NCBI GenBank assembly: GCA_032622095.1
Contig: CP136064.1
Span: forward strand, 214,224,205-214,288,204
Source: Siphonodentalium dalli
Taxonomy: Eukaryota; Mollusca; Scaphopoda; Gadilida; Siphonodentaliidae
Length of the DNA stretch: 64,000 bases
Direction of reading: 5' to 3'
Below the pieces are notes generated by a model. That model ran no database searches, had not been told where the DNA came from, and worked only from the letters and a program-made list of their open reading frames with translations. A program made the position numbers and the translations under genes. Shown here one piece after another: positions 1-51,176 of the stretch; within the stretch, counting starts at the first letter, position 1, and each line of letters starts with the position of its first letter.

Positions 1-720
1 ATGTATTGTCTTTGAGAGTCCAATCCTTGCGAGGCTTGATTTACCCTGTGTGAAAACAATATGTTTTTATGGACACACCAACAATTGCACCGGTTGACTG
101 TACAGCAGGATATATATACGTCAATTGTGAAAACACCCCATACATTTGGGCCTCGCTGCATAAATTAGGTTGAATTACATCCCAGGTATGCTTGATTCAT
201 GATTAACATCGCTACATTTATACAGCTGCTTTACGATGCCGTCTATTTCAGTGTTGGAAAGAATCCATATAAATATAGATTATATTGTATCGATTTATAT
301 AATTGAACCGGTAGCCACAAGTCCCTGACACAAAATTGGCCAGAGCACTATAAGAGTACCTATATTTGAATAAAAGTACTTTTAGTACTATACGATCAAT
401 ATTGTGTCAGGGACCTGTGCATGTATATCTATCAACTTCGAACTGGTATTGAAGGTATTGAAGGCCATGCAGGATATGATAGTAATGTCATCCCCCGGCT
501 GTTAGATGGAGACCAGTGACTCAGCAGCTGATATGGTGCAATTCACAAAGTCCAACATAAGCCGTACGGCAATAACAAAACTGGTTCCAATCCGATAAGT
601 GCGGATTTGTTATCAACGAAATGGAAAGATAACATGATTGGTGAATCTGGTCAAGTTTCTCAATTACTTTGCGGGGGGTCGGTGGTTTCTACCTGCAGTG
701 AATTGATTTACCGTCTGCAT
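1..720. other. Upstream non-coding stretch (probable intron), nothing recognised except one hairpin
   Basis: No convincing exon or coding stretch was seen on either strand. The only structure is the short inverted repeat at 321..414. The first recognised exon (1374) begins in phase 0 in the middle of a prodomain, so earlier exons of the gene must lie further upstream, and this stretch is presumably part of an intron. Confidence 0.5.
321..414. repeat. Short hairpin / mini-MITE
   Basis: The two ends are exact inverted copies, GTCCCTGACACAA on the left and its complement TTGTGTCAGGGAC on the right, about 94 bp apart, with the inner part partly self-complementary around AAAAGTACTTTTAGTACT. This is the form of a very short foldback or MITE. 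No flanking duplication was clear and the superfamily is unknown. Confidence 0.5.
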
Positions 721-723
721 TAA

Positions 724-1215
724 AGGCACGTGAGGCCTTAGTTGTCGAAAATATTCATATTTGTTCCAATCACCGTTAACAGAAAAACATTAAAACGCAT
801 AGTTTCGTTCATATATACGATGACCATCGCGTAAACAGCATGTTATCATAAAGATTTACTATATTTTACCTAAGCAAGAGCCTGATTGTGTTACAGAAGA
901 CAACACAATGCTGCTGGCTAATCACACACAAATGGCATAAACGCTCTTTATTCGTTCCATATCAGGAATTCACCCACAAAGAACGCTCTTTATGTTTACC
1001 ATCATAATATAAACAAACACCAGAAAAGTAACTTTTTATGCTTTTGTTTACATAACAATGGTCAAAAATATGACAATAACATACTGTTTATGCGATATTT
1101 CTTATTTGTATACGGACAAAGTCTGTCTACATTTTGTTGTTCTTTCTGTTTGTGACGGTTTTTGACGGGTGGAAATATTTTCACAGGATACCCACCGCCA
1201 AGGCCAACCGTACCT
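724..1215 (+). mobile_element. TTAA-flanked MITE, family A1, copy 1
   Basis: About 492 bp bounded on both sides by TTAA (720..723 and 1216..1219). It opens with AGGCACGTGAGGCCTTAG and closes with CCAAGGCCAACCGTACCT. The ends form an imperfect inverted repeat of about 23 bp sharing AGG-ACG and GGCCTT. TTAA duplication is the hallmark of piggyBac-type insertion, so this is probably a non-autonomous derivative; no transposase is encoded. The short ORFs inside recur in other copies and are not genes. It ends 158 bp upstream of a host exon. Confidence 0.85.
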
Positions 1216-1373
1216 TTAATCCTCTGGGCGGTCTTTCCTCCCCAATATACAAAATCGTACCGTCCGGTTGTTATCGTCACGGCACGACTCTATACGTGTA
1301 TAAGTTCAGAATATGCTACACAGCGTTCATAACAATATGGTCCATTCTTGATACATTTTCGTTTAATTTTCAG

Positions 1374-1491: not shown

Positions 1492-2248
1492 GTTAGCAAT
1501 ATATGCAGCTTTTATAATATCTCCTGGAAAATAAAATGAGAAAATCATCAAATGATGAACAAGTGAACGTCCTTTAAAGTATTAATTTCTTGTCCATTAG
1601 GATACCTGCGAATGAGCTTAATCTTAACATACATTTACACCACATTTGCCTGAGCACACCCATCTCGCCATTAGATGGACATATGCACAATGTCTAAATT
1701 CACAACAATAACGACCTCGCCACGAAAAGGAAAACATACAACATTGTCTGGAGTCCAGAAAACCGGATTCTCGCCAATTGATTCTAGGACATGCATTCAT
1801 GACGAGGACACTATTTCGATATCTGATTCAATTGGGGATCTTACATGTAAAAATATGAGGCACTGGTTGTTAGACTCCTGAACGCAACCTGGTGGTGGGG
1901 ATGCGACCACCGGTTTAAGACCGCTACCTCGTGGTGGAATACACGTGGTAGATCTGTGATATCGTCAAGGAAATCCACGTTAATCCCCATAACATGAAGC
2001 ATAAAATCACCTTCGCGGAAATCTCTTACCTATCATGACATCTGCGTCCTCGTCGCGGTAATAGACTTGTGAATTGTGAACTTGTGAATTGAGAGCATAT
2101 GCTGGCCAGGTATTAGATTCCGGAACAAATACATTAAGTCATTGAAACATTCAGTGCCATTCACTACTTCACCACCAAAACCTGGAAAATGGTCGACCAC
2201 GTAGGGGCAGGGCAACCCATAGATCGCAATATCGCAACACCATCTACT
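1492..2248. other. Intron segment, nothing recognised
   Basis: This lies between the first visible exon and the palindromic element. Short ORFs (a 68-codon one near 1675 and a 60-codon antisense one near 2033) have no recognisable family and no splice-site support. No repeat family shared with the rest of the window was noticed. Confidence 0.4.
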
Positions 2249-2254
2249 GACACC
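2249..2254. repeat. Left 6-bp target-site duplication (GACACC)
   Basis: GACACC directly abuts the left end AGTAGTATATACTG of the palindromic element and is repeated directly after its right end at 8432..8437. Six-base duplications are diagnostic of Polinton/Maverick integrase-type insertion. Confidence 0.8.
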
Positions 2255-3457
2255 AGTAGTATATACTGAGCTGTCTCAGCCCGAAGCGAGGTTCAACCGT
2301 TCAACCAATGTTTACATAACACGTTGCTATGTTGTGTTGTTAAGGGGGTACTTAAATTTAAAGGTAGACAATGGGTTTAAAGGGACAACAATTGAATTTA
2401 AATGGATGCTATTGAAATGTATTTAAAGGGAAAGATAGAAGAATTAATCGGGTCATTGAATTTAATGAGTGTGTTGAATGGGTTGTAATTGATAGAGTAT
2501 ACAAGAATGAATCGGGTCATTGAAACTGTTTCGAACGAGATCGGGTCAGTGATTTATCTAGCGGTAGGTTTAGATATATAAGAATTTGCTTTGTGCGAAC
2601 CCATAGCTGAATTAGATAGGATCTGGCATGGGATAAGAACTTGATGTAATTGATAGAGTATACAATACGGGCATAATTGGAATGATATGTGGAAGCAACC
2701 GATCAGTAAGTATTAGTCAAATGAACGAGTTTTATATATGTGACTATTTGGCAAGATCAGTCTTCATCAGATGCCAGTGGGTACGAAGCGGACGATGGCA
2801 AATGAATACAGCGAAAAGAAAAAACTCGGGATTCTTTTGAACCCCCAACTATCAATTAATATGAGTTATATTCCATAATCCCTCTGTTGATTTAGTTGGT
2901 TAGGACTCCAAGCAGATATTTCGTCCCAGATCGAGCAAGTCGTGGGTTCAAACAGAGTGATAGTAGTCGACAAGTTTGAACATAACCTCTGGGCGCCGCA
3001 TATATCACGTGGTTTCCGCCACCAAGGTAGAGTTTATCCATATAGCAGAAGGTGATCGTATATGATCGAAAACGGGTATAAATATTATATAGTATAGGTT
3101 ACATATTCGGGTAGATGGTTTGACTGCCTAAGCCCTAGACTCCTCAACCTCAGCCACCAGGGGTGAGAGGTCACGTCGCGGTGTGTTATCACTAATGGAA
3201 TAGGATATCGGGGTGATAAACGATCGCGTTAACCCTATTGCGTATCGCCTACAATATGAAAGAAAATAGGGGGCGTGTACTTGGGTGGAGGTTATGCGGA
3301 TATCGCAGATAAGAAGATACCGTTGATATATATTGGTACTATAAAAGGAATATATAACGCTGTTATATTACGAACACACATATTATATGGAACAATGAAG
3401 ACAAATAAACAGTATAGTGTATCAACATTTGCTTTATTCGACACCAAGAATAATAGG

Positions 3458-3463
3458 TTTATT
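3458..3463 (-). promoter_or_regulatory. Polyadenylation signal of the minus-strand ATPase gene
   Basis: AATAAA on the minus strand lies about 8 bases after the stop codon of the 3472..5043 gene. A second AATAAA follows about 25 bases further on. Both are mirrored in the other arm. Signals this close to the stop suit a compact virus-like gene. Confidence 0.5.
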
Positions 3464-3471
3464 GCAGTTAA

Positions 3472-4903
3472 TCATCGATTGTCATCGTCGTCATCTTGCT
3501 CAGAGTCTTGAGAGGAGTCCATCTGATTATCGTTTTTGTCCTCACTTTTATTTCTCATGTACTCCATCAGGAGGGGTTTATATGTCCTCAAAGAAATCCG
3601 AACAGCAGGGAGTATATCATAGCTATCATCTAGCATCTTATACACACGATCCATGATCTTGTTATGAGTTTTCCCACCACTAACTTCAAGTAAATTTCGT
3701 ATAAATGCAGCGTATATGTTTAAGAAACGCCTTTCATACTCGGGACGTATCTTCACTTTCGATTTTTCTTCAGCCTCGTCTTCCGTCAATCCTTTCTTCA
3801 TATAACGTTCAACTAATTCATCTAATTCTGCTTTATTGTCATCTTGGGCCTGTAACCACACCTCTTCGAAATAATCGTTTTCTTTTTCAGTCGGAAGTTT
3901 TAATATTAGTCTGTCCTGGTCCGGAATTAATTCTATTTTATTCGTGTCAGTTTTCTGTTTTTTATTATTCACCCGTGCATTTTCAATTGATTCTCTTTTC
4001 TTCCTATCAGAACACCAATTTTTAATGTGCCTTTGTACATCATGCTGGGTCTCAAATACGACACCACAATCGTCACAGCTTGGCATGATGTTGCCTTCGC
4101 TTTCAGAGTCGTATTCCTGCTGTAACAATAGCCCAGGGTATGTAGTTTCACTGATATTATCTTTCTTTTGATGCGTTATCACATCGACGGGCTCATCAAC
4201 ACTACTGTTATTTGACAATGTGCTTTCTTGTTTTATACTAGTCTTTGTCAGCACATTACTACGAAGTCGCAAATTTTCTGGAGTATTCGTTTTTAAGTCA
4301 ACTACGAGATAACCAAATGGTTGATTGGTAGCTTCATTGAAATGGGACATAAAGTGTTGTGTTTTCTCTGGATACATTTGACGAGCTAGAGTCATTACCT
4401 GCATTTTATCTATAGGGTTGTTGAATAGAATCAAGTAGTGGCAATTTCTCCGTTGGGTAGGGTCCTTGTTATAGTAGAGAGATTGATTAATTGCAACCAC
4501 TGATATACCCAAATGGTGACTGCCTTCCGTGAATAATTCAGTAACCCGCGAATCCTTGGATGCCGTAGACATAAGGTCATCAAGTACAATCAGACATTTT
4601 TTTCCAGAATGAATGAGGGTGTCCAAGTTAGTCGGAAGACCTTGTATAAACTGGACAGATGGCGCGACTGTGTCCTTGATTTCATCGTATAATGGCTGCC
4701 AGTACTTATAGAACCAAATTATTTTCTCGGGTGAAGGCTGTATACTCGCTGAACAATTTTGAAGTATACTTTTAAGCAAGTGTGTTTTGCCGCAAGAAGT
4801 GGGTCCCGAAATCCACGCGGTAAATGGATGCCTGAATTTGAAGTCATCCTGTCGCGCGCCACCACTGCTTTCTCTATAAGGTTGTTGTTGTTGTTGTCGT
4901 TGT

Positions 4904-4937
<34 letters not shown>

Positions 4938-5043
4938 GTAGTTGTTGTTGGTGTTGTTGTCGAGAGTGTTTGAACTTTATATGCCGTTTTAAACTGTCTG
5001 GCCATACATATTCAATTGAACATGTTTCACACTGATGCTTCAT
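3472..5043 (-). CDS. Polinton-like A32-type packaging ATPase with zinc fingers, left copy
   Basis: 523 codons from the ATG at 5043; the open frame continues further upstream through the palindrome centre, but that part is antisense of the other copy. Layout: C2H2 finger (CETC...HIKFKH, residues 5-26), polyglutamine tract with a few Arg (about 29-54), P-loop ATPase with Walker A GPTSCGKT (80-87) and Walker B LIVLDD (151-156), then FTEGSHHLGISVVAINQ and GYLVVDL motifs. A second finger CDDC...HIKNWC (323-344) and a charged helical C-terminus with an acidic tail follow. The family pumps viral genomes into capsids. It differs from the right copy at two residues seen (Thr for Ile in 'STLSNN', Thr for Met in 'TDTNKI'). 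Intact, so possibly functional; expression is unknown. Confidence 0.75.
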
Positions 5044-5087
5044 CCTTGACCGATCTGAGGGCACTGAGTCTTTTCCAGATAAAAGAG

Positions 5088-5100
5088 GGAAGAACAATAT
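5088..5100. other. Centre (spacer) of the giant palindrome
   Basis: GGAAGAACAATAT is the only stretch lacking an inverted partner. Both arms run from it without interruption, so the two gene starts (5043 and 5145) are only 101 bp apart, back to back. The spacer and its flanks must hold any promoter shared by the two genes; no TATA box was recognised. Confidence 0.8.
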
Positions 5101-5144
5101 CTCTTTTATCTGGAAAAGACTGAGTGCCCTCAGATCGGTCAAGG

Positions 5145-5250
5145 ATGAAGCATCAGTGTGAAACATGTTCAATTGAATATGTATGGCCAGACAGTTTAAA
5201 ACGGCATATAAAGTTCAAACACTCTCGACAACAACACCAACAACAACTAC

Positions 5251-5284
<34 letters not shown>

Positions 5285-6716
5285 ACAACGACAACAACAA
5301 CAACAACCTTATAGAGAAAGCAGTGGTGGCGCGCGACAGGATGACTTCAAATTCAGGCATCCATTTACCGCGTGGATTTCGGGACCCACTTCTTGCGGCA
5401 AAACACACTTGCTTAAAAGTATACTTCAAAATTGTTCAGCGAGTATACAGCCTTCACCCGAGAAAATAATTTGGTTCTATAAGTACTGGCAGCCATTATA
5501 CGATGAAATCAAGGACACAGTCGCGCCATCTGTCCAGTTTATACAAGGTCTTCCGACTAACTTGGACACCCTCATTCATTCTGGAAAAAAATGTCTGATT
5601 GTACTTGATGACCTTATGTCTACGGCATCCAAGGATTCGCGGGTTACTGAATTATTCACGGAAGGCAGTCACCATTTGGGTATATCAGTGGTTGCGATTA
5701 ATCAATCTCTCTACTATAACAAGGACCCTACCCAACGGAGAAATTGCCACTACTTGATTCTATTCAACAACCCTATAGATAAAATGCAGGTAATGACTCT
5801 AGCTCGTCAAATGTATCCAGAGAAAACACAACACTTTATGTCCCATTTCAATGAAGCTACCAATCAACCATTTGGTTATCTCGTAGTTGACTTAAAAACG
5901 AATACTCCAGAAAATTTGCGACTTCGTAGTAATGTGCTGACAAAGACTAGTATAAAACAAGAAAGCATATTGTCAAATAACAGTAGTGTTGATGAGCCCG
6001 TCGATGTGATAACGCATCAAAAGAAAGATAATATCAGTGAAACTACATACCCTGGGCTATTGTTACAGCAGGAATACGACTCTGAAAGCGAAGGCAACAT
6101 CATGCCAAGCTGTGACGATTGTGGTGTCGTATTTGAGACCCAGCATGATGTACAAAGGCACATTAAAAATTGGTGTTCTGATAGGAAGAAAAGAGAATCA
6201 ATTGAAAATGCACGGGTGAATAATAAAAAACAGAAAACTGACATGAATAAAATAGAATTAATTCCGGACCAGGACAGACTAATATTAAAACTTCCGACTG
6301 AAAAAGAAAACGATTATTTCGAAGAGGTGTGGTTACAGGCCCAAGATGACAATAAAGCAGAATTAGATGAATTAGTTGAACGTTATATGAAGAAAGGATT
6401 GACGGAAGACGAGGCTGAAGAAAAATCGAAAGTGAAGATACGTCCCGAGTATGAAAGGCGTTTCTTAAACATATACGCTGCATTTATACGAAATTTACTT
6501 GAAGTTAGTGGTGGGAAAACTCATAACAAGATCATGGATCGTGTGTATAAGATGCTAGATGATAGCTATGATATACTCCCTGCTGTTCGGATTTCTTTGA
6601 GGACATATAAACCCCTCCTGATGGAGTACATGAGAAATAAAAGTGAGGACAAAAACGATAATCAGATGGACTCCTCTCAAGACTCTGAGCAAGATGACGA
6701 CGATGACAATCGATGA
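5145..6716 (+). CDS. Polinton-like A32-type packaging ATPase with zinc fingers, right copy
   Basis: 523 codons from the first ATG (5145); an upstream extension would need a GTG start at 5124. Same architecture as the left copy: N-terminal C2H2 finger, CAA-encoded polyGln tract, P-loop GPTSCGKT, Walker B LIVLDD followed by LMS, SHH and Gln sensor-like motifs, a second C-x2-C...H-x4-C finger, and an acidic tail ending in a run of Asp. The C-terminal part (about 371-500) has a conserved feel (GLTEDEAEEKSK, HNKIMDRVYKML) but no domain I can name. The pair is divergent and shares the palindrome centre. No other viral gene is adjacent. Assignment to the A32/FtsK-HerA packaging class is from motifs; Polinton origin is supported by the element's ends. 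Confidence 0.75.
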
Positions 6717-6724
6717 TTAACTGC

Positions 6725-6730
6725 AATAAA
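6725..6730 (+). promoter_or_regulatory. Polyadenylation signal of the plus-strand ATPase gene
   Basis: AATAAA lies 8 bases after the TGA stop, with a second AATAAA at 6750..6755. Both are mirrored in the left arm. Confidence 0.5.
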
Positions 6731-7765
6731 CCTATTATTCTTGGTGTCGAATAAAGCAAATGTTGATACACTATACTGTTTATTTGTCTTCATTGTTCCA
6801 TATAATATTGGTGTTCGTAATATAACAGCGTTATATATTCCTTTTATAGTACCAATATATATCAACGGTATCTTCTTATCTGCGATATCCGCATAACCTC
6901 CACCCAAGTACACGCCCCCTATTTTCTTTCATATTGTAGGCGATACGCAATAGGGTTAACGCGATCGTTTATCACCCCGATATCCTATTCCATTAGTGAT
7001 AACACACCGCGACGTGACCTCTCACCCCTGGTGGCTGAGGTTGAGGAGTCTAGGGCTTAGGCAGTCAAACCATCTACCCGAATATGTAACCTATACTATA
7101 TAATATTTATACCCGTTTTCGATCATATACGATCACCTTCTGCTATATGGATAAACTCTACCTTGGTGGCGGAAACCACGTGATATATGCGGCGCCCAGA
7201 GGTTATGTTCAAACTTGTCGACTACTATCACTCTGTTTGAACCCACGATTTGCTCGATCTGGGACGAAATATCTGCTTGGAGTCCTAACCAACTAAATCA
7301 ACAGAGGGATTATGGAATATAACTCATATTAATTGATAGTTGGGGGTTCAAAAGAATCCCGAGTTTTTTCTTTTCGCTGTATTCATTTGCCATCGTCCGC
7401 TTCGTACCCACTGGCATCTGATGAAGACTGATCTTGCCAAATAGTCACATATATAAAACTCGTTCATTTGACTAATACTTACTGATCGGTTGCTTCCACA
7501 TATCATTCCAATTATGCCCGTATTGTATACTCTATCAATTACATCAAGTTCTTATCCCATGCCAGATCCTATCTAATTCAGCTATGGGTTCGCACAAAGT
7601 AAATTCTTATATATCTAAACCTACCGCTAGATAAATCACTGACCCGATCTCACTCGAAACAGTTTCAATGACCCGATTCATTCTTGTATACTCTATCAAT
7701 TACAACCCATTCAACACACTCATTAAATTCAATGACCCGATTAATTCTTCTATCTTTCCCTTTAA

Positions 7766-8259
7766 AGGCACGTGAGGCCTTAGTTGTCGAAAATATTCAT
7801 ATTTGTTCCAATCACCGTAAACAGATAAACATTAAAACGCCTACAGTTTCGTTCATATATACCATGACCATCGCGTAAACAGCATGTTATCATAAAGATT
7901 TACTATATTTTACCTAAGCAAGAGCCTGATTGTGTTACAGAAGACAACACAATGCTGCTGGCTAATCACACACAAATGGCATAAACGCTCTTTATTCGTT
8001 CCATATCAGGAATTAACCCACAAAGAACGCTCTTTATGTTTACCATCATAATATAAACAAACACCAGAAAAGTAACTTTTTATGCTTTTGTTTACATAAC
8101 AATGGTCAAACATATGACCATAACATACTGTTTATGCGATATTTCTTATTTGCATACGGACAAAGTATGTCTACATTTTGTTGTTCTTTCTGTTTGTGGC
8201 GGTTTTTGACTGGTGGAAATATTTTCACAGGATACCCACCGCCAAGGCCAACCGTACCT
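7766..8259 (+). mobile_element. TTAA-flanked MITE, family A1, copy 2, inside the palindrome
   Basis: 494 bp from AGGCACG to CGTACCT, flanked by TTAA at 7762..7765 and 8260..8263. The mirror position in the left arm has a single TTAA between the same flanks (CTTTCCCT and ATACATTTC, reading the complement), so this is a clean insertion with a documented empty site and exact 4-bp duplication. It inserted after the palindrome formed, or escaped conversion from the other arm. Confidence 0.92.
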
Positions 8260-8431
8260 TTAAATACATTTCAATAGCATCCATTTAAATTCAATTGTTG
8301 TCCCTTTAAACCCATTGTCTACCTTTAAATTTAAATACCCCCTTAACAACACAACATAGCAACGTGTTATGTAAACATTGGTTGAACGGTTGAACCTCGC
8401 TTCGGGCTGAGACAGCTCAGTATATACTACT

Positions 8432-8437
8432 GACACC
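8432..8437. repeat. Right 6-bp target-site duplication (GACACC)
   Basis: Direct copy of 2249..2254 immediately after the terminal ACTACT of the element. Confidence 0.8.
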
Positions 8438-15167: not shown

Positions 15168-15677
15168 AGATGGGGCGGCGTTGACGGTGGGTATGCTGTT
15201 AAAATATTCACATCCATCAAAAACCGCCATAAACAGAAATAATAGTAAAATATTGACAGACTTTGTTCTTATACCAATCAGAAATATGGCATAAGCAGTA
15301 TGTTATTGTCAATTTTTTTCCCTTTGTCATGTAAACAAAAGCAAAAAAGGTTACGTTTCCTGGCTATCCGGATATGGTAAACATAAAGAGCGTTATTTGT
15401 TACTGTTTTCCTGATATGGAAATAATAAAGAGCGTTTATATAATTTGTGTGTGATTAACCAATATAATTGCGCTGTGTTATGTAAACAGAAGCTTAACTT
15501 ATGTAACACGAGCAGGCTCTTGTTTACGTACACCACCGTACGTCTTGATGATAATATACTATGTACGCGCTGATTATGTTTGGCATATGAATAAAACTAT
15601 ATATATTTTAATATTCCTTCTGTTGATGGCGATTTGAACAAATATGAATATTTCTGCAACGAACGCCACCCGTGCCT
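15168..15677 (-). mobile_element. TTAA-flanked MITE, family A2 (divergent subfamily), copy 1
   Basis: About 510 bp between TTAA at 15164..15167 and 15678..15681, reverse orientation. Starts AGATGGGGCGGCGTTGACGG and ends GAACGCCACCCGTGCCT. It shares the internal landmarks of family A1 (CATAAACAG, 'AAAAACCGCCATAAACAG', AAAGAGCGTT, 'GGCTCTTG') but is clearly diverged. It pairs with 37161..37677. Confidence 0.8.
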
Positions 15678-17322
15678 TTAATGCAATTGGTAATGGCAAC
15701 TACATGGTTATGAACTTATGATTACAATATTGCGGTTTTAATTCCGAATTTATCATTTGCATATATCGGTGATACTGACCAAAGCCGGCTCATAAAATGG
15801 CGGTCATTAAAGCATGATCCAACTAAATCGTTAACACATTTAATAAACTGATCATAGCATTTATTTGTGCAAAATCTCATAGAAACCGGGCCCATAGCCA
15901 AGGAGATATTGTTCAATTCATCAGAGGAACATGTTTTTGGAGGCGTTTCAAAACCTGATGCAATTGTGCAACAGGTTATCGTTCATATATTTTATCACAC
16001 TGCCCAAACTATGTGCAGCCTATCGGTGCAAGTGGGTATCGACGGATGTCTCGCATGTGATCCATTTCTGCTGGGGAAAGCTAGATTAGGGCCCTGCGAA
16101 TATTCTAGATTCTATTCCATGTTGATATCGCCGATGTCATTCGGGATCGACATCGAATCGGAATCCCGATTCGAATATTCAAATTTCCACATCATTGACA
16201 CATTGTTGCCAATACACGGTGATGGTGAAATACGAATCATGAATCGGTGATACTGGCCAAAGAAGGCTCATTGTTGTGTTTATTATCAGAGTCTTGTTCG
16301 CTTAGGTAACTTCAAAAAGAGATGAACCACATTAGAGATGAACCACATGTCCAAAATAACCTTGCATTTTGTGATCAATCGGTAACTGGTTAATTGTTAG
16401 AGGTCATACGAGATATGAAGTGGTTATTTAATTGTTAGAAGCCATACGAAATATGAAGTGGGTGTATATATATCAAACAAAATGTATCTTTAAAGTAATA
16501 CACCAGTCGTCGGGATAGATTAATTTAAATGAACGAAATAATTCACTTATGTTTCATTGCTCCAATGTATTTCTTAGCCCCAAACAATGTAGTGTAATGT
16601 TGATGACGCATCCTGCCCCATTATACATCTACGCATAACTGTTGGTGCTGCGTATACCGTAATCCATATAAGAAATGACTGGAAGATCGATTGGGGTGAT
16701 TGGATATTAATAAATGTATTAAACACGAACTTTGACTCTGCCGGTCAAAACCAATGGCCCAAATCGATCGTCCAGTAATTCCTTATAATCATATACCAGT
16801 ATATTTTAATAGAACATTAATAACACAATGAACAACTTTTCAACACTACCAAAACAATGTATGTAAGTAACATATTGTTCAAATTCCAACACACTCTCCC
16901 ATTAACAACACGAGCGAGCGCGTGCACGGCTTGAAGTAACTTATGTGGATCGTCGCTTTTTGAGTAGTGCATGGGGGCTGCAGTCATTGCTTGATAAACC
17001 TCGGAAACGTTCGTGTAAATCGTATGGTGATTTGTACTGATTCTTATGGGTGTGTGAATGTAGAGGGTGTGTGGTTATATTGACTTATTCATGGTTGCTG
17101 TATCAACTCCGTTTGAACATATATATATTCATGTTCCGGCCATATTTAAACTATACACAGGGATAATAACTGTTTGTGACAGAGATATCGCCATTTCAGT
17201 TATACATAGCATATTTCTTTTGATCACTCATAATTGCGTACGAACTGCTGTCTGAACAGAACAGTTATTCAACGTGGTAGAGAAAACACCAGTGAGTGTA
17301 CAAAATTCTGTTTTGTTTCCAG
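15678..17322. other. Intron with an unassigned 127-codon ORF and a short direct repeat
   Basis: A motif CGGTGATACTGACCAAAGCC near 15770 recurs as CGGTGATACTGGCCAAAGAA near 16247. Between them is an ORF (15867..16250) with no recognisable domain, probably chance or an element remnant. The rest shows nothing recognisable. Confidence 0.35.
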
Positions 17323-19400: not shown

Positions 19401-19417
19401 ATTGTGCGCCGCTTTAA

Positions 19418-19858
19418 AGGTACGGTTGGTCTTGGCGGTGGGTATCCTGTGAATATATTTCCACCCGTCAAAAACCGTCACAAACAGAAAGAACAACAAA
19501 ATGTAGACAGACTTTGTCCGTATTGTTATGTAAACAAAAGCATGAAAAGTTACTTTTCTGGTGTTTGTTTATATTATTATGGTAAACATAAAGAGCGTTC
19601 TTTGTGGGTGAATTCCTGATATGGAACGAATAAAGAGCGTTTATGCCATTTGTGTGTGATTAGCCAGCACTATTGTGCTGTCTTCTGTAACACAATCAGG
19701 CTCTTACTTAGGTAAAATATAGTAAATCTTTATGATAACATGCTGTTTACGCGATGGTCATGGTATATATGAACGAAACTGTATGCGTTTTAATGTTTTT
19801 CTATTTACGGTGATTGGAACAAATATGAATATTTTCGACAACTAAGGCCTCACGTGCC
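19418..19858 (-). mobile_element. TTAA-flanked MITE, family A1, copy 3 (internally deleted)
   Basis: Reverse orientation, AGGTACGGTTGGTCTTGGCG to CTAAGGCCTCACGTGCC. TTAA precedes it (19414..19417); at the far end one T is lost so the junction reads CCTTAAAG. It lacks roughly 50 bp between 'CTTTGTCCGTAT' and 'TGTTATGTAAAC' present in other copies. Confidence 0.82.
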
Positions 19859-19862
19859 TTAA

Positions 19863-20740
19863 AGTTAAGGACATGCTACTGCAGTAAATCTGACAATAGC
19901 AACATAGCTTGGGTAATTTATTCTGATGAGTTTGGCATAAGATTACTAAGTTGATACTTGATAGACCATTCCAACATTGGTCAAGTTTCCTGTTGTTTGC
20001 ATTTTATTATTTCTACGAAGGACAGAGGGCAATGCATCAAAATGCTGCTGGCAACATATTGGTTACTCACATCTATTGAGTGCACATCTATATTGATGGA
20101 TTGTTGATGCCTTTGCACTATGTCCTTCAACTATTCATAATAACATGCGAACAACCAGGAACTTTGGCATTTTAGAGATAATCACACAAGAAGTCACCAA
20201 TTGTTTGAGAATCCTGGAGAATCACTAAGAATGTGGTTTTCTGTAGTTCACAGAATGGTCATTGTCTAGCAGTAGAACGCAGATTTGTACCTCATGATGT
20301 CATGACATGTACAAACATGTATATTGGTGATCGCAACGCTGTGTATGCACTTTAAAAAATGACAACTAGTCATTACCTCGACTTTGAAAAAGATGCAAAT
20401 GAGATGAGTGAGATTCCAGCATATAACTGTTTTCTGAAACCATTGGAGGAGAAATTGTTTAATACATGGGATAGTTCTGCAGTAAACATTTGCCAGATAA
20501 GCGATCGCAGGGTAGAATTCTGCATTCGACTGGTAGACACTGACATAGTCGGCATTATTACGAGGGTTAATGGGGTCAATATCACATGTAAACCAAGACA
20601 GTGGTTATCCAAAATTGTTTTATGTGGATTGTACTACTCATGTATATATGATTTGGATATTAAGGTTAATCCATATTCTATAAAATGAGAGAAAATTGAA
20701 GTTGTGAGTCTAAAAATACATATTTGGAAAAAAATTACAT
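19863..20740. other. Intron with an unassigned 109-codon ORF (20359..20688, +)
   Basis: The ORF reads MTTSHYLDFEKDANEMSEIP at its start and has no domain I recognise. Upstream, from 19980, discontinuous reading frames suggest an old coding remnant, but no family could be named. There is no splice-site support linking it to the metalloprotease gene. Confidence 0.25.
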
Positions 20741-24130: not shown

Positions 24131-24390
24131 TATTATAGTCTCGTTACGTACACATTTTTCTTTTATAACTTTTGCTTCAACGCGCCGAGTTCTAGCTGCT
24201 GCAGACAATACAAAACTGACAACATATTGAAATGTAAGCAGGCTTCAAACTAATATTATCCAATAAAAACTCTGGCTACATCAGAAATTTGTGTATAAGG
24301 TGTACTCGCATTTGTTGCGTTAAAAACCAAAGGTCCCAAGTCAAGGTCCAAATCCCCAACAAACTGATGTGAGGTTTAACTCCATCTACA

Positions 24391-24789
24391 TACAGTAATG
24401 TCCAAAGTAATTGATCACTTAACCACAGCAGAATTATGGGTAATTTTTCAAGATTTTAAATCCTGAAAAATTACCCTTAATTCTGCTGTGGTTAATTGGT
24501 CAATTACTTTAGGCATTACTGTAGCCCATATAAGGATGTGAGGTCTAATGATAACTCCATCCACATACAGTAATGTCCAAAGTAATTGACCACTTAACTA
24601 CAGCAGATTGTGGGTATTTTTTCCGGATTTTAAATCCTGAAAAATTACCCATAATTCTGCTGTGGTTAAGTGGTCAATTACTTTGGGCATTACTGTATCC
24701 CATATAAGGATGTGAGGTCTAATGATAACTCCATCTACATACAGTAATGTCCAAAGTAATTGACCACTTAACCACAGCAGAATTATGGC
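24391..24789. repeat. Tandem array of 174/175-bp units, each containing a hairpin
   Basis: Units start TACAGTAATGTCCAAAGTAA at 24391, 24566 and 24740. Within each of the first two, CAAAGTAATTGACCACTTAA ... CAGAATTATGGGTAATTTTT folds onto an almost exact complement ending ATTACT...CATTACTGTA. The linker is CATATAAGGATGTGAGGTCT then AATGATAACTCCATC. TA plus CAGTAATG ends suggest a Tc1/mariner-type MITE that became a satellite. The third unit is cut after half the stem at 24789. Confidence 0.8.
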
Positions 24790-27962: not shown

Positions 27963-27966
27963 TTAA

Positions 27967-28461
27967 AGGCACGTGAGGCCTTAGTTGTCGAAAATATTCA
28001 TATTTGTTCCAATCACCGTAAATAGAAAAACATTAAAACGCATACAGTTTCGTTCATATATACCATGACCATCGCGTGAACAGCATGTTATCATAAAGAT
28101 TTACTATATTTTACCTAAGCAAGAGCCTGATTGTGTTACAGAAGACAGCACAATGGTGCTGGCTAATCACAGACAAATGGCATAAACGCTCTTTATTCGT
28201 TCCATATCAGGAATTCACCCACAAAGAACGCTCTTTATGTTACCATCATAATATATTAACAAACACCAGAAAAGTAACTTTTTATGCTTTTGTTTACATA
28301 ACAATGGTACAAAATATGACAATAACATACTGTTTATGCGATATTTCTTATTTGTATACGGACAAAGTCCGTCTACATTTTGTTGTTCTTTCTGTTTGTG
28401 GCGGTTTTTGACGGGTGGAAATATTTTCACGTGATACCCACCGCCAAGGCCAATCGTACCT
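27967..28461 (+). mobile_element. TTAA-flanked MITE, family A1, copy 4
   Basis: 495 bp, AGGCACGTGAGGCCTTAG to CCAAGGCCAATCGTACCT, TTAA at 27963..27966 and 28462..28465. Full length and close to the copies at 724, 7766 and 30918. Confidence 0.88.
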
Positions 28462-28465
28462 TTAA

Positions 28466-30813: not shown

Positions 30814-30917
30814 TCAAACAACAACATTCCTATGAAACTCCTTTTGCAGACATGGTTAAATTATTATTACCACAAACACACAAGAAAAACATCTCCCGTT
30901 GCACATGTTTTACTTAA

Positions 30918-31412
30918 AGGCACGTGAGGCCTTAGTTGTCAAAAATATTCATATTTGTTCCAATCACCGTAAACAGAAAAACATTAAAACGCATACAGTT
31001 TCGTTCATATATACCATGACCATCGCGTAAACAGCATGTTATCATAAAGATTTACTATATTTTACCTAAGCAAGAGCCTGATTGTGTTACAGAAGACAGC
31101 ACAATGCTGCTGGCTAATCACACACAAATGGCATAAACGCTCTTTATTCGTTCCATGTCAGGAATTCACAAACAAAGAACGCTCTTTATGTTACCATCAT
31201 AATATATTAACAAACACCAGAAAAGTAACTTTTTATGCTTTTGTTTACATAACAATGGTCAAATATATGACAATAACATACTGTTTATGCGATATTTCTT
31301 ATTTGTATACGGACAAAGTCTGTCTACATTGTGTTGTTCTTTCTGTTTGTGGCGGTTTTTGACGGGTGGAAATATTTTCACAGGATACCCACCGCCAAGG
31401 CCAACCGTACCT
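30918..31412 (+). mobile_element. TTAA-flanked MITE, family A1, copy 5
   Basis: 495 bp, TTAA at 30914..30917 and 31413..31416, ends AGGCACG and CGTACCT. It is followed 98 bp later by an inverted copy (31511). Confidence 0.88.
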
Positions 31413-31510
31413 TTAAAAATGTTTCGAAATATATGTTTCCAGTCAAATATGTTAAATGGACAAGACTCGAGCTTCCAAATTGTGTCTCCATAAATTGGAA
31501 GGAGGTTTAA

Positions 31511-32004
31511 AGGTACGGTTGGCCTTGGCGGTGGGTATCATGTGGAAATCTTTCCACCCGTCAAAAACCGCCACAAACAGAAAGAACAACAAAATTTAGG
31601 CAGACTTTGTCCGTATACAAATAAGAAATATCGCATAAACAGTATGTTATTGTCATATTTTTGACCATTGTTATGTAAACAAAAGCATAAAAAGTTACTT
31701 TTCTGATGTTTGTTTATATTATGATGGTAAACATAAAGAGCGTTCTTTGTGGGTGAATTCCTGATATGGAACGAATAAAGAGCGTTTATGCCATTTGTGT
31801 GTGATTAGCCAGCACCATTGTGCTGCCTTCTGTAACACAATCAGGCTCTTGCTTAGGTAAAATATAGTAAATCTTTATGATAACATGCTGTTTACGCGAT
31901 GGTCATGGTATATATGAACGAAACTGTAAGCGTTTTAATGTTTTTCTATTTACGGTGATTGGAACAAATGTGAATATGTTCGACAACTAAGGCCTCACGT
32001 GCCT
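31511..32004 (-). mobile_element. TTAA-flanked MITE, family A1, copy 6
   Basis: 494 bp, reverse orientation, AGGTACGGTTGGCCTTGGCG to CTAAGGCCTCACGTGCCT, TTAA at 31507..31510 and 32005..32008. Together with copy 5 it forms a head-to-head inverted pair with about 98 bp between. Confidence 0.88.
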
Positions 32005-32330
32005 TTAAGATAGGTTTACAAATACACGAAGTATTTATACATACCGGCTTCACATACTCTGTTTGCCTCCGAAAAATATTTGCTATCGTACGCCGGTCAC
32101 CCCCACTTTACGACTGTTTTTAATTTTTCTCACTGGTCGTAGAATGGTAGTTCAAGTATTTGTCGACCTATTGTCGAGAGTGCATGTGTTGTATAATTAT
32201 GACGAGATACCTTGTCAAACACATTGCATGGTTTAAAAACAGTTATTTCCGTATTTTCGGATAGGCATATCAATATATGTGACCCACCATATCAAATCCA
32301 GTCGTAAGTCGGGATTTTTTTTACCCTGTG

Positions 32331-32399: not shown

Positions 32400-32723
32400 T
32401 TACAATTTTTTACAATTTTAATAATTTTTTCTTGTATTCTTTAACAATTTTATAATTTCACCCATACAGAGCCCCAGACAAACATGAGCAGACGACACTC
32501 TTCTATGTGCTTCTATAGATGTGTGGGGCTCCCTGCAGGGTAATGGATGTTTTTTTATTTTATGTCCTAAACATTTTAGGAAATAATATTTTTTTTAAAT
32601 GATAAAAAATTGTTAGGCCAATGCATTCTCTTATATATGCGAGGCGACCTATCGTCGACTCGCATATATAAGAGAATGCATTGGCACAGGGTAAAAAAAA
32701 TCCCGACTTCCGACTGGATTTAA

Positions 32724-33215
32724 AGATACGGTTGGCCTTGGCGGTGGATATCCTGTGAAAATATCTCCACCCGTCAAAAACCGCCACAAACAGAAAGAAC
32801 ATCAAAATGTAGATACTTTGTCCGTATACAAATAAGAAATATCGCATAAACAGTATGTTATGGTCATATGTTTGACCATTGTTATGTAAACAAAGGCGTA
32901 AAAAGTTACTTTTCTGGTGTTTGTTTATATTATGATGGTAAACATAAAGAGCGTTCCTTGTTGGCGAATACCTGATATGGAACTAATAAAGAGCGTTTAT
33001 GCCATTTGTGTGTGCTTAGCCAGTAGCATTGTGCTGTCTTCTGTAACACAATCAGGCTCTTGCTTAGGTAAAATATAGTAGGTCTTTATGATAATATGCT
33101 GTTTACGCGATGGTCATGGCATATATGAACGGAACTGTATTCGTTTTACTGTTTTTCTGTTTACGGTGTTTGGAACAAATATGAATATTTTCGACAATTA
33201 AGGCCGCACGTGCCT
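32724..33215 (-). mobile_element. TTAA-flanked MITE, family A1, copy 7, nested in a fold-back element
   Basis: 492 bp, reverse, AGATACGGTTGGCCTTGGCG to TTAAGGCCGCACGTGCCT, TTAA at 32720..32723 and 33216..33219. It splits the right arm of the element 32274..33237; the left arm shows the uninterrupted flank (GGATTTGATATGG). Confidence 0.85.
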
Positions 33216-33239
33216 TTAATATGGCGGGTCACATATATA

Positions 33240-34540
33240 GATGCCAATGTGCAATACTTCGAAATAATCCTGAATTAAAGGCTTAGTATGATTTATTCAT
33301 GCCACATTGAGATATCCCTCAACTCAGTTCAAGCTTGACGATAAGTATCGATTGTTATTACTTCTTCTCTTCATTTCTTTGATCTATCACATATCTATTG
33401 AAGTGGTCTCACATCCGTGCATCTATGAGTTCAATAGATCAACGAGTGACGGATAGTAACCCTTTCTGAGAATGTCATTCGTTCCAAAAAGTACAGTCTT
33501 CTGCGATTACTCTGTATTAACATGACCGGGAGTGTGGTCAATGTTATTGTTAACAAATTATCAATTGTTATCGAATGGCCATGTTGTGATACAAATCGAT
33601 ACACAATTTCTAATTTCCACCCCTTTCTTTTGTGCCATATATAATTGCGGTCTACGTACTCATTATATTTAAGAAACATTTGGGTGATCTATATTGCGGC
33701 GATCGCCGAACTTATATATGCTTATATATGTTAATGTTTCTTCAAGTTTGTCAGTCCGGATCGAATTCTACCGAGACTTATGATTTTATTGCTTTATAAT
33801 CGACTTTTAATGACGTCAATATGTATGCTATTGCTCCTCACTGGGTGGGGGTCGCCGCTAACTGCGACACTTTTGTTCTAACTGCTGTTTTTCTGAATCG
33901 TTTTATAATTCAACCGCGTGTTGCATGATTTAACTCGTTTAAATAATAATAAAGATATCGTATTTCCGTGGTTATATTGACTTCGTTCTTTCTGCATCGT
34001 TTATTACTGATCGTATGAAGCCGACGTTCTACCTATTTACTATATGCGTAGTAATATAGTCTCATGTGTATGTGTTCCAGTCTCAACCCAGGAGCCTATA
34101 TGAGTATATAGGAGTAAGGGATTGGATCTGAAATGGGGTGGTGTCCATATCCAGTACCAACTGCGTGATTTTCGCACTGCGCTTTGTTGGTAGCCTAATC
34201 TCAAACGTAATTTCACCGGAAACATTCTGAAAAATCAATCAGTTTTCAATTAAGTAACGATTGTTGTCACTCTTAACACATTTCGCGCATTTTCATCATT
34301 AAAATTTCTAATATTCACTTACTTTAAACATAATTTATTCGTATATAAATATACAACGGGGATCAGGGCACAAGTTATTTCAACTTATAGGTATAGCCCA
34401 TCTCCCGCATACAATTTGACAATACATGACAAGAAGACGATAACAAGCGTTTGTACATGGTGAGAACAAATTTTGAATTTTCATTATGTCGAAAACATAT
34501 TTCAGCGTATGTGTCCATGAATTACCAATTACGACGAGAA
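33240..34540. other. Intron, nothing recognised
   Basis: No repeat shared within the window and no convincing coding frame. Short ORFs at 33431 and 34040 (antisense) have no family signature. Confidence 0.35.
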
Positions 34541-34547
34541 TAAAAAT

Positions 34548-35126
34548 ATGCCTATATCTGTATATGTTGGGACATTTAAGGAAGATGTGAAATATACAAT
34601 TGAAGGCTGTATGGCGAAAACATTTGACTGTGAGGTAAATCTTAATTATATAGTAGATAATTTGGCGACAGGCCCGATGACGACCTTGACGGTTACGCTG
34701 GAAGAGAAGTATGAATATATACAGGGATGGCAAACCATAATTAATTCCTCTGACAAATACCAATTCTATAGAATGATCAAAAACGAATTTGAAGAAGAAA
34801 TTTACCTTCTAAAGCTCCCAACAAACGAAGCATTATCGTTGTTGCGATTCCGCAAGCGAAATCATCGATTGGCAATTGAAACGTCAAGTTGGAAAAACTT
34901 TCCCACCAGTAACACGTGCACGTTATGTGGAAAGTCTATTGGAAGCGAGTACCACACACTACTGATATGTGAGAGTCTCAACGATACCAGGGTTAAATTT
35001 ATTCCGCGATACTATTATACACACCCAAATGACGATAAACTCCGTCATCTCACTTATGAAAAACAATAAATCTCAGGTGCTGCACAATGTCTATCGTTTC
35101 ATAAAATTGATAAATGAAAAAATAAT
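34548..35126 (+). pseudogene. LINE (non-LTR retrotransposon) ORF2 C-terminal remnant
   Basis: From about 34720 the frame reads like the tail of a CR1/L2-type ORF2 protein: YQFYRMIKNEF, FRKRNHRLAIE, then a CCHC-like knuckle CTLCGKSIGSEYHTLLIC and YYYTHPND. A stop follows at 35067, but the -1 frame continues LMKNNKSQVLHNVYRFIKL, so a frameshift near 35050 broke the end. The first 55 or so codons are not recognisable. It is truncated at the 5' end, as is usual for LINE copies, and lacks the reverse transcriptase core. Confidence 0.7.
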
Positions 35127-36995: not shown

Positions 36996-37160
36996 GTAAG
37001 AGCATTATATGGAAGGTATGTCATATGCCAGCACAAATATGTGAGGTAGTGATACATCGTGTCGAACCAGCTAGGTTTCTGGACACAATGTAAAGCGGGT
37101 CTAAATATTCGGTGGTTGCGGTTGATAACCAGCGACCCCCAGGTATGAACATCTTGTTAA

Positions 37161-37677
37161 AGATACGGGCGGCGTTGGTGGTGGGTATGCTGTTGAAATA
37201 TTCACCTCCGTCAATAACCGCCATAAACAGAAAGAATAGTAAAATATAGACATACCTTGTTCTTATACCAATCAGAAATATGGCATAAACAGTATGTTAT
37301 TGTCAATTTTTTTCCTTTGTTATGTAAACAAAAGCAAAAAACGTTACGTTACCTGGCTTTTGTTTAGATCCGGATATGGTAAACATAAAGAGCGTTGTTT
37401 GTTACTGTTTTCCTGATATGGAAATAATAAAGAGCGTTTATATAATTTGTGTGATTAACCAATAGAATTGCGCTGTGTTATGTAAACAGAAGCACAACTT
37501 CTGTAACATGAGCAGGATCTTGTTTACGTACACCATCGTACGTTTTGGCGACAATGTACTATTTACGCGCTGATTATGTTTGGCATATGAACAAAACTAC
37601 ATATATTTTAATATTCCTTTTGTTGGTGGCAATTTGAACAAATATGAATATTTCTGCAACGAACGCCGCCCATGCCT
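37161..37677 (-). mobile_element. TTAA-flanked MITE, family A2, copy 2
   Basis: 517 bp, reverse, AGATACGGGCGGCGTTGGTG to GAACGCCGCCCATGCCT, TTAA at 37157..37160 and 37678..37681. Close relative of 15168..15677. Confidence 0.82.
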
Positions 37678-38847
37678 TTAACTAAATTGTCTACTCAGCA
37701 CGTTGAGTGAAAATTTGTTGAGCGAATTGTACTCAGCTGTTGAGCAATGAGTACTCCTCAACAATGACAAACCAGGATATCTGTATCGGATTAAATCAAT
37801 GCGTTGATTATAGTCTGGTCGATAAACTAAATTTTAGGGTCAACCTAGAATAAATTTGGACTAAGTTGGTTTCTATTCCATTTTGAAGAGAAATGTATCC
37901 TCTATAACATATCCAAAATCGGCTAAAATCCGCTTTGATCATTTTCTGTAATCCAAGATGGCGTCCATGATGGCAGTTGGTATCGACAAATTCTGAATTT
38001 CGGTGGTATTGGGCGCCAACTAATACCAAATTAGTAATAAAATAAAATACACACAAACAATGCTTAGTCGTAAGCCATATCGGTAGAATGCCTGTCCCAA
38101 TATGACCGCCAAAATGGACAAAATAATATGAAATTTTTAATTTGTGGAAAATTGAATAGCTAGTCATACAAGAACGAACAAGCCCTCGAATTATACGAGG
38201 AAGAATGATTTCAGAGTATACGGGGAGCTTTTAATAATAGATGTAAGATTCTCTCCAATGTATCTCGCGAGAGAGCAAACGAAAGCCAGGTCTCATACAA
38301 CAATTAAATATGGAGTTTGTGGGCGCCAAGAACCAGAAGAATAACGCAGTTTTATCTGTACTGTTTATCTTGAATCGCGTAATATATGTGTAATTAAACA
38401 GTTAAATGTTATCTAATAGGGATGTCTTGACTATGTGACCTTTTCTAGAGGCAGAAATGTATGTAATGAAAACAGTCTCACGAATCATTTATTTTTAAAT
38501 CTACAACGCCAAATATGTCAAAATTCACAACTATAGAACAGTATGAGAGCTATTCATATGGTACTAGGCAAAATATGTAGATCCTATTGTCCGTGTCTTA
38601 AAATAGTAGTCTAAGTTGCCTCCGGTCAATTGATTAAACACGAATATTTCGCTTTTATCACACAAATACATGGTGGTATACCATAAACGCAATTTATCAA
38701 AATACAAAGGAGTACAATAAACTATCTTCAATAAATTCTCAACATAACCAAATTTGCCTACATACTCTGTGGCAGAGACTGTATTTATACCTGGAAATTA
38801 TATGTGCTTAACTGCACTAAGGCCACATATACGCGAAACGTGGTAAC

Positions 38848-49538: not shown

Positions 49539-50219
49539 CTAGAAGGTGACCCGACTTCGTCCGGGCTATTCAAAAACCAAATTTCAAGTCGATAGCTCCA
49601 CCCGTTTCCTAGATCTGGTCTGCGCATGCGCGAAGCTGGTGTCGCACGTGCTCGGCGACCCGATAAAATTCGTATCCGGGGCAAGATACATTCACATACC
49701 AAATTTCAAGTCGATAGCTACACCCGTTTGCGAGATATATAGCCCAATGTCATTTGCGGATACCTCGGCCGGTGATGAGTTAACGCGACACAGTCAAATG
49801 CATCGGCAGGGTGAGAGTTAACGTAATCTAACTTTATGACCTCTGACGACGTCATAGAAATTACGCATTGATTTTATCCCGATAAAAGCATCGGACCACT
49901 TGTACCTAATAATTGAGGCAGATAACTAAAACGGATACATACATATTATATATCGTTGGAAAGAGGACACGCCACAGATTCTAACCGTGCAAATTATATG
50001 ACTGGCAATTTATTATTCGCGCTATATCGAATCGATTTGTGAGCACCGAACTGAAATATATTAGCGCAAAAACGGCGTAAAAACAGATTTGACCTCCGCA
50101 CGTGAAAAGTTGACCTCGCACGGACAAATAAATATGCCTATGTTCGTCTCCGGCCGAAAACACATCCAAATACCAAATTTCATCGAAATTGGCTTAGTCG
50201 TTTTCGAGTCCATCGATTT

Positions 50220-50261
<42 letters not shown>

Positions 50262-51095: not shown

Positions 51096-51139
<44 letters not shown>

Positions 51140-51176
51140 AACACATACACAGATCTTTCAAAATATATAATAGATT
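50293..51176. mobile_element. RTE/SINE-like dispersed unit, copy 2 of a tandem pair
   Basis: Same unit as 49539..50292, nearly identical over the last 600 bp, but with an extra module of roughly 125 bp: the block from CCTAGATCTGGTCTGCGCAT to TTCACATACCAAAT is present twice. It ends in a second (CA)n run (51099..51134) and TTTCAAAATATATAATAGA. The near identity points to recent tandem duplication. Confidence 0.65.

What the first reader, a model, noticed from the sequence alone, without database searches (positions are those of the whole stretch)
2249..8437. A palindromic Polinton: two intact packaging-ATPase genes as mirror images, 6-bp TSD, AG...CT ends
Seen: position x pairs with 10188-x from the 13-bp centre to the last base of both ends, and GACACC is duplicated outside. 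Known: Polinton/Maverick elements start AG, end CT, duplicate 6 bp and encode an A32-like ATPase. Inference: this is a mobile derivative reduced to one terminal segment of a larger virus-like element and doubled tail to tail, perhaps by hairpin-primed replication or an intermediate of linear DNA replication. Keeping an intact gene in both arms is odd for a parasite of parasites; most non-autonomous elements keep no gene. It could be a self-propagating ATPase-only element.
Basis: partly seen in the sequence, partly recalled or inferred. Interest (0 to 1): 0.88.

Follow-up and report, generated by a model that had tools for sequence, protein, structure and literature searches.

The report
Mirror-image satellite of virus-like transposons
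In this mollusc-like genome a small jumping element made of two mirror-image copies of one end of a virus-like transposon, each with one DNA-packaging gene, has spread as a palindrome to many places, which suggests that it copies itself through a folded hairpin while borrowing enzymes from larger relatives.

Summary
The palindrome is real and mobile. Element 2255-8431 has AG...CT ends, a GACACC duplication, and arms that differ at 11 of 2833 positions. Each arm carries an open 523-aa C2H2/A32-IVa2-like ATPase.

I read 37 arm-bearing copies (two duplicate another by their flanks): 30 show the same end inverted against itself, 4 stop 0-57 bp past the palindrome's centre, 3 are otherwise cut or nested; none continued into a parent Polinton in what was read. 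Of 22 two-ended elements with both ends read, 20 have a 6-bp duplication, all different. Seven, the window included, share one central junction with seven duplications. In 13 of 15 elements on a tree the arms are sisters (the other two are one duplicated insertion). Polintons of 14-16 kb share the termini and carry polymerase at one end, integrase towards the other.

Best reading: a non-autonomous palindromic Polinton satellite, replicated and integrated in trans, its arms re-made through a hairpin. Hairpin, helper use and ATPase function are inferred. My paper searches listed no such Polinton.

The parts
2249..2254 (.). left target-site duplication GACACC
8432..8437 (.). right target-site duplication GACACC
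2255..5087 (+). left arm of the palindrome (read from terminus inward)
   Evidence: 11 mismatches in 2833 against the right arm
5088..5099 (.). unpaired centre; the shared central junction (25-mer) lies at 5088-5112 on the - strand
5100..8431 (-). right arm of the palindrome, interrupted by the TTAA insertion
2255..2572 (+). terminal inverted repeat portion shared with 14-16 kb Polintons (93-98%); starts AGTAGT
2573..3471 (.). non-coding subterminal region between terminus and ATPase stop (mirror copy 6717-7615)
3472..5043 (-). ATPase gene, left copy: C2H2 finger, polyQ, A32/IVa2-like P-loop ATPase (Walker A GPTSCGKT), second C2H2 finger
5145..6716 (+). ATPase gene, right copy (523 aa)
7766..8263 (.). 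498-bp later insertion of a short repeat between TTAA copies (7762-7765 and 8260-8263), right arm only; exact placement ambiguous by a few identical bases; copies elsewhere in the window

Best explanation
The element is a non-autonomous, satellite-like member of the Polinton/Maverick world whose transposing unit is itself a 5.7-6.3 kb palindrome: two mirror-image copies of one Polinton-type end, each with one packaging-type ATPase gene. Shown: the structure; AG/CT ends with 6-bp duplications at 20 loci; spread of one palindrome (one central junction) to many loci; arms that group together within an element; and Polintons with the same termini that carry a family-B polymerase at one end and an rve integrase towards the other. 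Inferred: full-length Polintons supply polymerase and integrase in trans; protein-primed synthesis from a terminus displaces a strand that folds into a hairpin because it is self-complementary; copying round the hairpin tip, or priming by a snapped-back 3' end, makes a new palindrome with two identical arms; the rve integrase inserts it. Template switching near the tip produces the many unequal-arm variants. The ATPase may favour packaging of the satellite in a helper particle, but its role is not established.
For: (1) 30 of 37 arm-bearing copies read are the same end inverted against itself; 0 of 37 continue into a parent Polinton in what was read. (2) 20 of 22 two-ended elements with both ends read have a 6-bp duplication, 20 different ones; the exceptions are L015, inside a larger palindrome with its own GTGAAT duplication, and L047, with an 8-bp direct repeat. 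(3) The window's junction 25-mer occurs at 11 places (10 exact, one with 2 mismatches), 0 for the reversed control; seven of these, the window included, have both ends read, with gacacc, gagaag, ttcagt, tgtagc, actatg, catgcc, tatgaa. (4) Arms are sisters in 13 of 15 elements on the tree, support 0.87-1.0; the other two, L042 and L043, share flanks and are one duplicated insertion. The outermost 24 bases are the same variant at both ends in 18 of 22 elements although variants differ between elements. (5) Four one-armed copies stop about 0, 35, 44 and 57 bp past the centre (L055, L028, L053, L021), as opened hairpin ends would. (6) L032: a satellite inside another Polinton-type element, the composite folded back at arm positions 2856|1168 with a 7-bp overlap and inserted as a 10,688-bp palindrome with duplication GTGAAT. 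(7) Helpers: 14-16 kb elements with the same ends and matching 6-bp duplications in 5 of 6 pairs (sixth: one end read); rve and Pox_A32 on one side, polymerase frame at the other, and the two kinds of end belong to one element type. (8) ATPase coding sequence is less diverged than non-coding arm in 11 of 11 comparisons.
Against: No hairpin molecule, transcript, particle or transposition was observed. Arm likeness could also come from gene conversion within the chromosome; for the window's right arm the nearest foreign arm (L010) is as close as its own partner, 0.56% each. dN/dS among intact ATPases is only moderately below 1: of 15 distinct pairs of 6 sequences, 13 are 0.32-0.52, one 0.97, one undefined; mosaics such as L044 inflate the coding/non-coding contrast. 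Many inserted copies have truncated ATPases (L013, L016, L024), so the gene is not needed in cis. Shared-junction elements are not one clade on the arm tree. L021 abuts an integrase gene; pieces of that gene lie on both sides, so I read it as an insertion into another Polinton. Beyond the centre only 0.8-0.9 kb was read for L053 and L055, so an insertion could hide a second arm. L050 shows the junction but only about 100 bp of second arm in the 1.1 kb read. Genome searches scored only part of the candidates (40 of 130, 82 of 5759), so a full-length parent may have been missed.
Confidence: 0.68

Rival explanations
1. Defective-genome model: palindromes arise again and again by fold-back of a full-length Polinton during replication and are dead ends; there is no self-sustaining palindromic lineage.
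For: 17 distinct central junctions among the 37 copies read (counting the slightly different L039 and L042/L043 with the window's), most with unequal arms and, by BLAST edges, overlaps of 0-7 bp or fillers up to about 10 bp; L032 is a clear fold-back of a composite molecule; the shared junction is not monophyletic on the arm tree.
Against: One junction at 11 places, seven with different duplications read; several copies share traces of one older centre near arm position 3050; no full-length element with this arm was found among 37 copies.
Confidence: 0.2
2. The palindrome spreads like an ordinary trans-mobilised transposon, and its arms are kept alike by gene conversion in the chromosome, not by hairpin replication.
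For: Arm conversion in chromosomal palindromes is known (recalled). Mosaic arms (L044) show recombination. Four of 22 elements differ between their outermost 24 bases.
Against: Likeness reaches the outermost 24 bases in 18 of 22 elements; one-armed copies stop at the centre; the L032 composite needs copying of an outer arm together with an insert before integration.
Confidence: 0.15
3. Assembly artefact: fold-back reads joined by the assembler.
For: Palindromes are often misassembled (general knowledge).
Against: Elements end exactly at target duplications with different flanks at 20 loci; the window's arms differ by 11 substitutions and a one-arm insertion.
Confidence: 0.01

Closest known systems
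Polinton/Maverick elements
   Same: AGT-repeat ends, 6-bp target duplication, A32-like packaging ATPase; the terminus is shared with 14-16 kb elements carrying polymerase and rve integrase genes
   Different: 5.7-6.3 kb when arms are equal (shorter when unequal), palindromic, one gene type only, no polymerase, integrase, protease or capsid gene
Hairpin and palindromic deletion derivatives of protein-primed linear plasmids (yeast hairpin plasmid, Kikuchi et al. 1985; kalilo deletion derivative, Vierula and Bertrand 1992). Only their titles in reference lists and citing sentences on other points were seen; their structure is recalled
   Same: one terminus doubled head to head or folded, in a replicon of the protein-primed type
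   Different: those are free plasmids in fungi; these are integrated, flanked by target duplications, multi-copy, with an open gene in both arms in several copies
Symmetrical defective adenovirus genomes (recalled, no paper read; the searches listed none)
   Same: two copies of one genome end, replicable because both ends carry an origin
   Different: not integrated and not an inherited lineage
Fold-back elements and MITEs (recalled)
   Same: non-autonomous, long inverted repeats, moved in trans
   Different: here the inverted repeat is the whole element, carries a protein gene, and has Polinton ends and 6-bp duplications

Membership tests
Polinton/Maverick | 6-bp target-site duplication | tested here: met
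   window gacacc; 20 of 22 two-ended elements
Polinton/Maverick | terminal inverted repeats starting with an AGT or AG repeat and ending in its complement | tested here: met
   AGTAGT...ACTACT; the motif is described for vertebrate Mavericks in passages of PMC8097293
Polinton/Maverick | A32/FtsK-like packaging ATPase | tested here: met
   Pfam Pox_A32 and Adeno_IVa2 above cut-off; bivalve homologues, some in gene models fused to integrase parts
[quoted passage not shown]
   apart from the ATPase and its antisense no frame of 80 aa or more lies in the element; the capped PF03175 list has no match at this locus
Polinton/Maverick | rve integrase | tested here: not met
   tblastn with four fused ATPase-integrase mollusc models matches only the ATPase part in the element
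Polinton/Maverick | capsid genes and protease | tested here: not met
   no frame left to hold them
non-autonomous Polinton derivative | shares termini with an autonomous Polinton of the same genome | tested here: met
   318 bp at 93-98% with 14-16 kb elements; polymerase end and integrase end belong to one element type. That any single copy is complete and active was not tested
non-autonomous Polinton derivative | mobilised in trans by that Polinton | not testable with these tools
   inferred from shared termini and 6-bp duplications
hairpin/palindromic derivatives of protein-primed replicons | two identical ends of one parent | tested here: met
   two like ends; the parent itself was not found
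hairpin/palindromic derivatives of protein-primed replicons | free hairpin molecule | not testable with these tools
   only indirect: one-armed copies ending at the centre

The most novel reading that the evidence does not exclude
A palindromic satellite virus of Polintons: a heritable lineage that replicates by a hairpin cycle through the helper's polymerase, and keeps its own DNA-binding packaging ATPase to divert helper capsids to its genome, much as some phage satellites redirect packaging (that parallel is recalled).
Probability: 0.3. Interest if true: 0.93.

Novelty: new variant of a known kind. Interest (0 to 1): 0.82.

Why it matters
To my knowledge (recalled) replication of animal Polintons as free linear DNA is inferred from their genes, and the abstract of PMC8097293, seen in a search listing, says that particles of Mavericks have not been observed. 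A palindrome that spreads as a palindrome, with like arms in each copy, leaves a genomic record of the replication intermediate and predicts a specific free molecule: a hairpin with one terminus. It also adds a satellite level to the Polinton world in an animal and makes the question 'do animal Polintons still replicate extrachromosomally?' directly testable. Arm divergence could date insertions as LTR divergence does, if arms start identical.

Tried and rejected
Viral contigs (IMG/VR): ATPase, ATPase alignment and a terminal 17-mer gave no relative. GTDB contigs gave one, L001, which looks like a mussel contig inside a symbiont MAG. Rfam and tRNA scans of the window: nothing. PDB sequences: only weak matches, mostly to zinc fingers. 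Considered and dropped: (a) the arm as the end of the 14-kb Polintons, because the inside differs, the ATPase there points the other way and is 32% identical over 193 aa; (b) an ATPase-integrase end, as in Mya gene models, with the integrase deleted, because no integrase remnant exists, although this remains possible for the distant past; (c) L047's inverted flanks as a second composite, because an 8-bp direct repeat explains them.

Papers: searches (words Polinton, Maverick, palindrom-, inverted duplication, foldback, hairpin, bivalve, non-autonomous, adenovirus defective genomes, linear plasmids) listed no report of palindromic Polintons that I could recognise. I saw titles and starts of abstracts, and some lists were capped (30 of 41, 20 of 26, 10 of 71, 12 of 13, 8 of 10). 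Most subscription papers are not in that library, and Repbase was not searched. I read passages only.

Sampling. Whole-genome search answered four times. The copies read were chosen from capped lists: all 7 short end-pairs besides the window's and all 11 single ends, all close mirror pairs (the wider pair at C1:229.93M was not read), 7 of its single high-identity hits and 2 older lineages (88-89%). Rows left out of the 37: L020, L025 and the 14-16 kb ends (terminus only), L001, L033, L034. L027 duplicates L016 and L043 duplicates L042; they count among the 37 but not among the 22 two-ended elements or the 20 duplications.
Full report
Observation. The element at 2255-8431 begins AGTAGT and ends ACTACT, between two copies of GACACC. 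The arms differ at 11 of 2833 positions. The palindrome therefore existed before that insertion. Both ATPase frames are open and differ at three codons. With so few differences, open frames by themselves say only that the insertion is recent.

The gene. Pfam gives Adeno_IVa2 and Pox_A32 above cut-off, and C2H2 fingers near the start and in the middle of the protein. 264 homologues were found among 7988 scored candidates, 120 listed; most of those with names come from bivalves (Mizuhopecten, Pecten, Solemya, Pinctada, Mytilus, Mya, Ruditapes). Some Mya and Mytilus gene models fuse the same ATPase to integrase and chromodomain parts, and a mussel contig in a symbiont MAG has frames that I read by eye as family-B polymerase, pointing away from the ATPase. 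So the gene type belongs to bivalve Polintons. The Walker A stretch GPTSCGKT and an LDD Walker B are conserved in the alignment of 22 (motif names recalled). The host is probably a mollusc; this is inferred from these homologues and not tested otherwise.

Other copies. The terminus (176 bp) gave 40 scored of 130 candidates in the 2.23-Gb genome; the ATPase gave 82 scored of 5759. I read 37 arm-bearing copies; two of them (L027, L043) duplicate others by their flanks. With positions counted from the terminus inward (ATPase stop about 1218, start about 2789), 30 copies have the form 1-X|Y-1, the same end twice in opposite orientation: equal or nearly equal arms in the window, L010, L011 and L039-L046, and unequal arms in others, for example L012 (2001|2808), L013 (2507|1154), L024 (1240|33), L029 (3056|2685), L031 (247|2657), L048 (3043|2865), L054 (3030|2053), L061 (2891|2068). 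For L049-L055, L061 and L062 only 1.1-1.3 kb upstream of the gene was read, and in L050 only about 100 bp of second arm was seen. Four copies (L021, L028, L053, L055) stop 0-57 bp past the centre. L022 and L026 are cut inside the arm, and L052 runs into another terminus. None continued into a parent Polinton in what was read; L021 abuts an integrase gene, but pieces of that gene lie on both sides of it, as for an insertion. That is 17 junctions, if the slightly different L039 and L042/L043 are counted with the window's.

Mobility. Of 22 two-ended elements with both ends read (duplicates removed), 20 have a 6-bp duplication: gacacc, gagaag, gttggg, catatt, accgcc, gatgac, gacagg, tatata, gataac, attgta, aataca, tacagt, atcatc, ttcagt, tgtagc, aatgca, actatg, catgcc, tatgaa, actaaa. 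tatata is low-complexity and weak on its own; accgcc needs a right end one ACT shorter. L015 lies inside a larger palindrome; L047 has an 8-bp direct repeat.

One palindrome, many places. The window's central junction joins CAGATAAAAGAG to AGATATTGTTC with a shared AGA, compared with the uninterrupted sequence in L028, L021 and L011; the window has lost about 15 more bases beside it than L010. The 25-mer across it occurs at 11 places, 10 exact and one with two mismatches, and at none for the reversed pattern. Seven of these, the window included, have both ends read, with seven different duplications. The palindrome has moved as a unit. Traces of an older centre near position 3050 (CCATCAT or GATTATT stems) remain in L028, L029, L053 and L055, so the palindromic state seems older than the window's junction. 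The arm tree does not show the shared-junction elements as one clade, and L044 has shared-junction insides with L011/L023-like ends, so recombination between elements, or repeated use of the same junction, has to be admitted.

Arms. In the tree of 30 arms from 15 elements, the two arms of one element are sisters in 13 elements, support 0.87-1.0; the other two elements are one duplicated insertion. Arm-arm divergence is 0-1%; the nearest arm of another element is at 0.5-5% (L042/L043 aside). For the window's right arm the two are equal, 0.56%, and the grouping rests on the tree (0.955). The outermost 24 bases are identical at both ends in 18 of 22 elements although variants differ between elements; the exceptions are L013, L016, L023 and L039. 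If the palindrome were copied as a fixed structure without exchange, left and right arms of same-junction copies would form two clades. They do not. A hairpin cycle predicts this; gene conversion in place could also give it.

Fold-back on a larger molecule. L032 (C4:173051529-173062216, 10,688 bp) has ends AGAAGAATAGG...CT, duplication GTGAAT, and arms of 4.5 kb at 99.6%. The arms hold a different ATPase, about 43% identical to P0004, open over 545 aa in the left arm and over 431 aa in the right; at the centre is a satellite folded at 2856|1168 with a 7-bp overlap. The simplest account: a satellite sat inside a second Polinton-type element, the composite was copied as free DNA, snapped back, and integrated. 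So palindromic derivatives occur in a second Polinton-type family; one case was seen.

Helpers. Elements of 14-16 kb share about 318 bp of terminus at 93-98% plus short subterminal patches. Of six such pairs of ends, five were read at both ends and have matching duplications (acgatc in two tandem copies, tccgaa, cataaa, tataag); the sixth was read at one end. On one side lie NADAR, PC4, a Pox_A32-type ATPase 32% identical to the window's, and rve; at the other a large frame with polymerase-like NSGYG and DTDS motifs (recalled), whose homologues carry PF03175, and a sub-threshold adenovirus-protease match. The frame itself did not match PF03175 and is split into two frames in L020. That the two kinds of end belong to one element type follows from end comparison: in the C3:248.4M element the left end L020 matches L025 and L037, and the right end L035 matches L017 at 98% over 2.2 kb. 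PF03175 finds many other open polymerase frames in the genome; only 69 of 1596 candidates were scored and none listed falls in the terminus-sharing elements. That these Polintons move the satellite is inferred.

Selection on the ATPase. Coding sequence is less diverged than non-coding arm in 11 of 11 comparisons (for example L011 3.1% against 15.1%, L023 2.4% against 11.1%, but L028 1.4% against 2.1%; the polyQ stretch was left out). dN/dS, by a simple counting method, for the 15 pairs of 6 distinct intact sequences: 13 at 0.32-0.52, one 0.97, one undefined. 29 of 82 listed matches are full-length without stops (counted). Constraint is likely somewhere in the history, but copies with truncated ATPase also moved, so the gene is not needed in cis and may act in trans or be inherited from a parent.

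Verdict. A real, multi-copy, palindromic Polinton satellite. It works like hairpin or palindromic derivatives of protein-primed replicons; it is not an autonomous Polinton. The mechanism is well supported in outline and unproven in its steps.

Noticed in passing
window 720-1219, 7762-8263, 19413-19863, 27963-28465, 30914-31425, 31506-32008, 32715-33219; 73% relatives 15177-15681 and 37157-37681: A family of about 500-bp repeats with AAAGGYACG-type ends, several flanked by TTAA; one copy interrupts the right arm.
   Followed up: partly
window 2244-2254 and 8427-8437: CTACTGACACC is repeated on both sides: the target beside the duplication happens to match the element's last five bases; chance or target preference.
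   Followed up: no
window 24390-24788, 53678-53847, 54768-54912, 55108-55259: Other short inverted repeats, MITE-like.
   Followed up: no
window 49568-51181: A 738-bp near-tandem duplication at 97%.
   Followed up: no
window 34521-35069 and 61685-62095: Two frames that look by eye like LINE C-terminal ends.
   Followed up: no
L018 657-2192: Polintons sharing the terminus carry NADAR and PC4 domain genes near one end.
   Followed up: partly
L014 300-2416: The first part of an element, including its flank and target duplication, is repeated in tandem.
   Followed up: no
L006/L007 and L003/L004 (C8:96.99-97.02M): Two 14-kb Polintons lie in tandem with the same flank and duplication acgatc, as from a duplication of the whole stretch.
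   Followed up: no
L024 2376-5255: A 960-aa open frame beside a 1.28-kb minimal derivative, not identified.
   Followed up: no
L001; protein P0025: Host-type Polinton DNA inside MAGs labelled as bacterial symbionts; probably host contamination.
   Followed up: no
L028 3228-5437: A 2.2-kb TTAA-flanked insertion with ends like the window's 498-bp repeat; possibly a longer relative.
   Followed up: no
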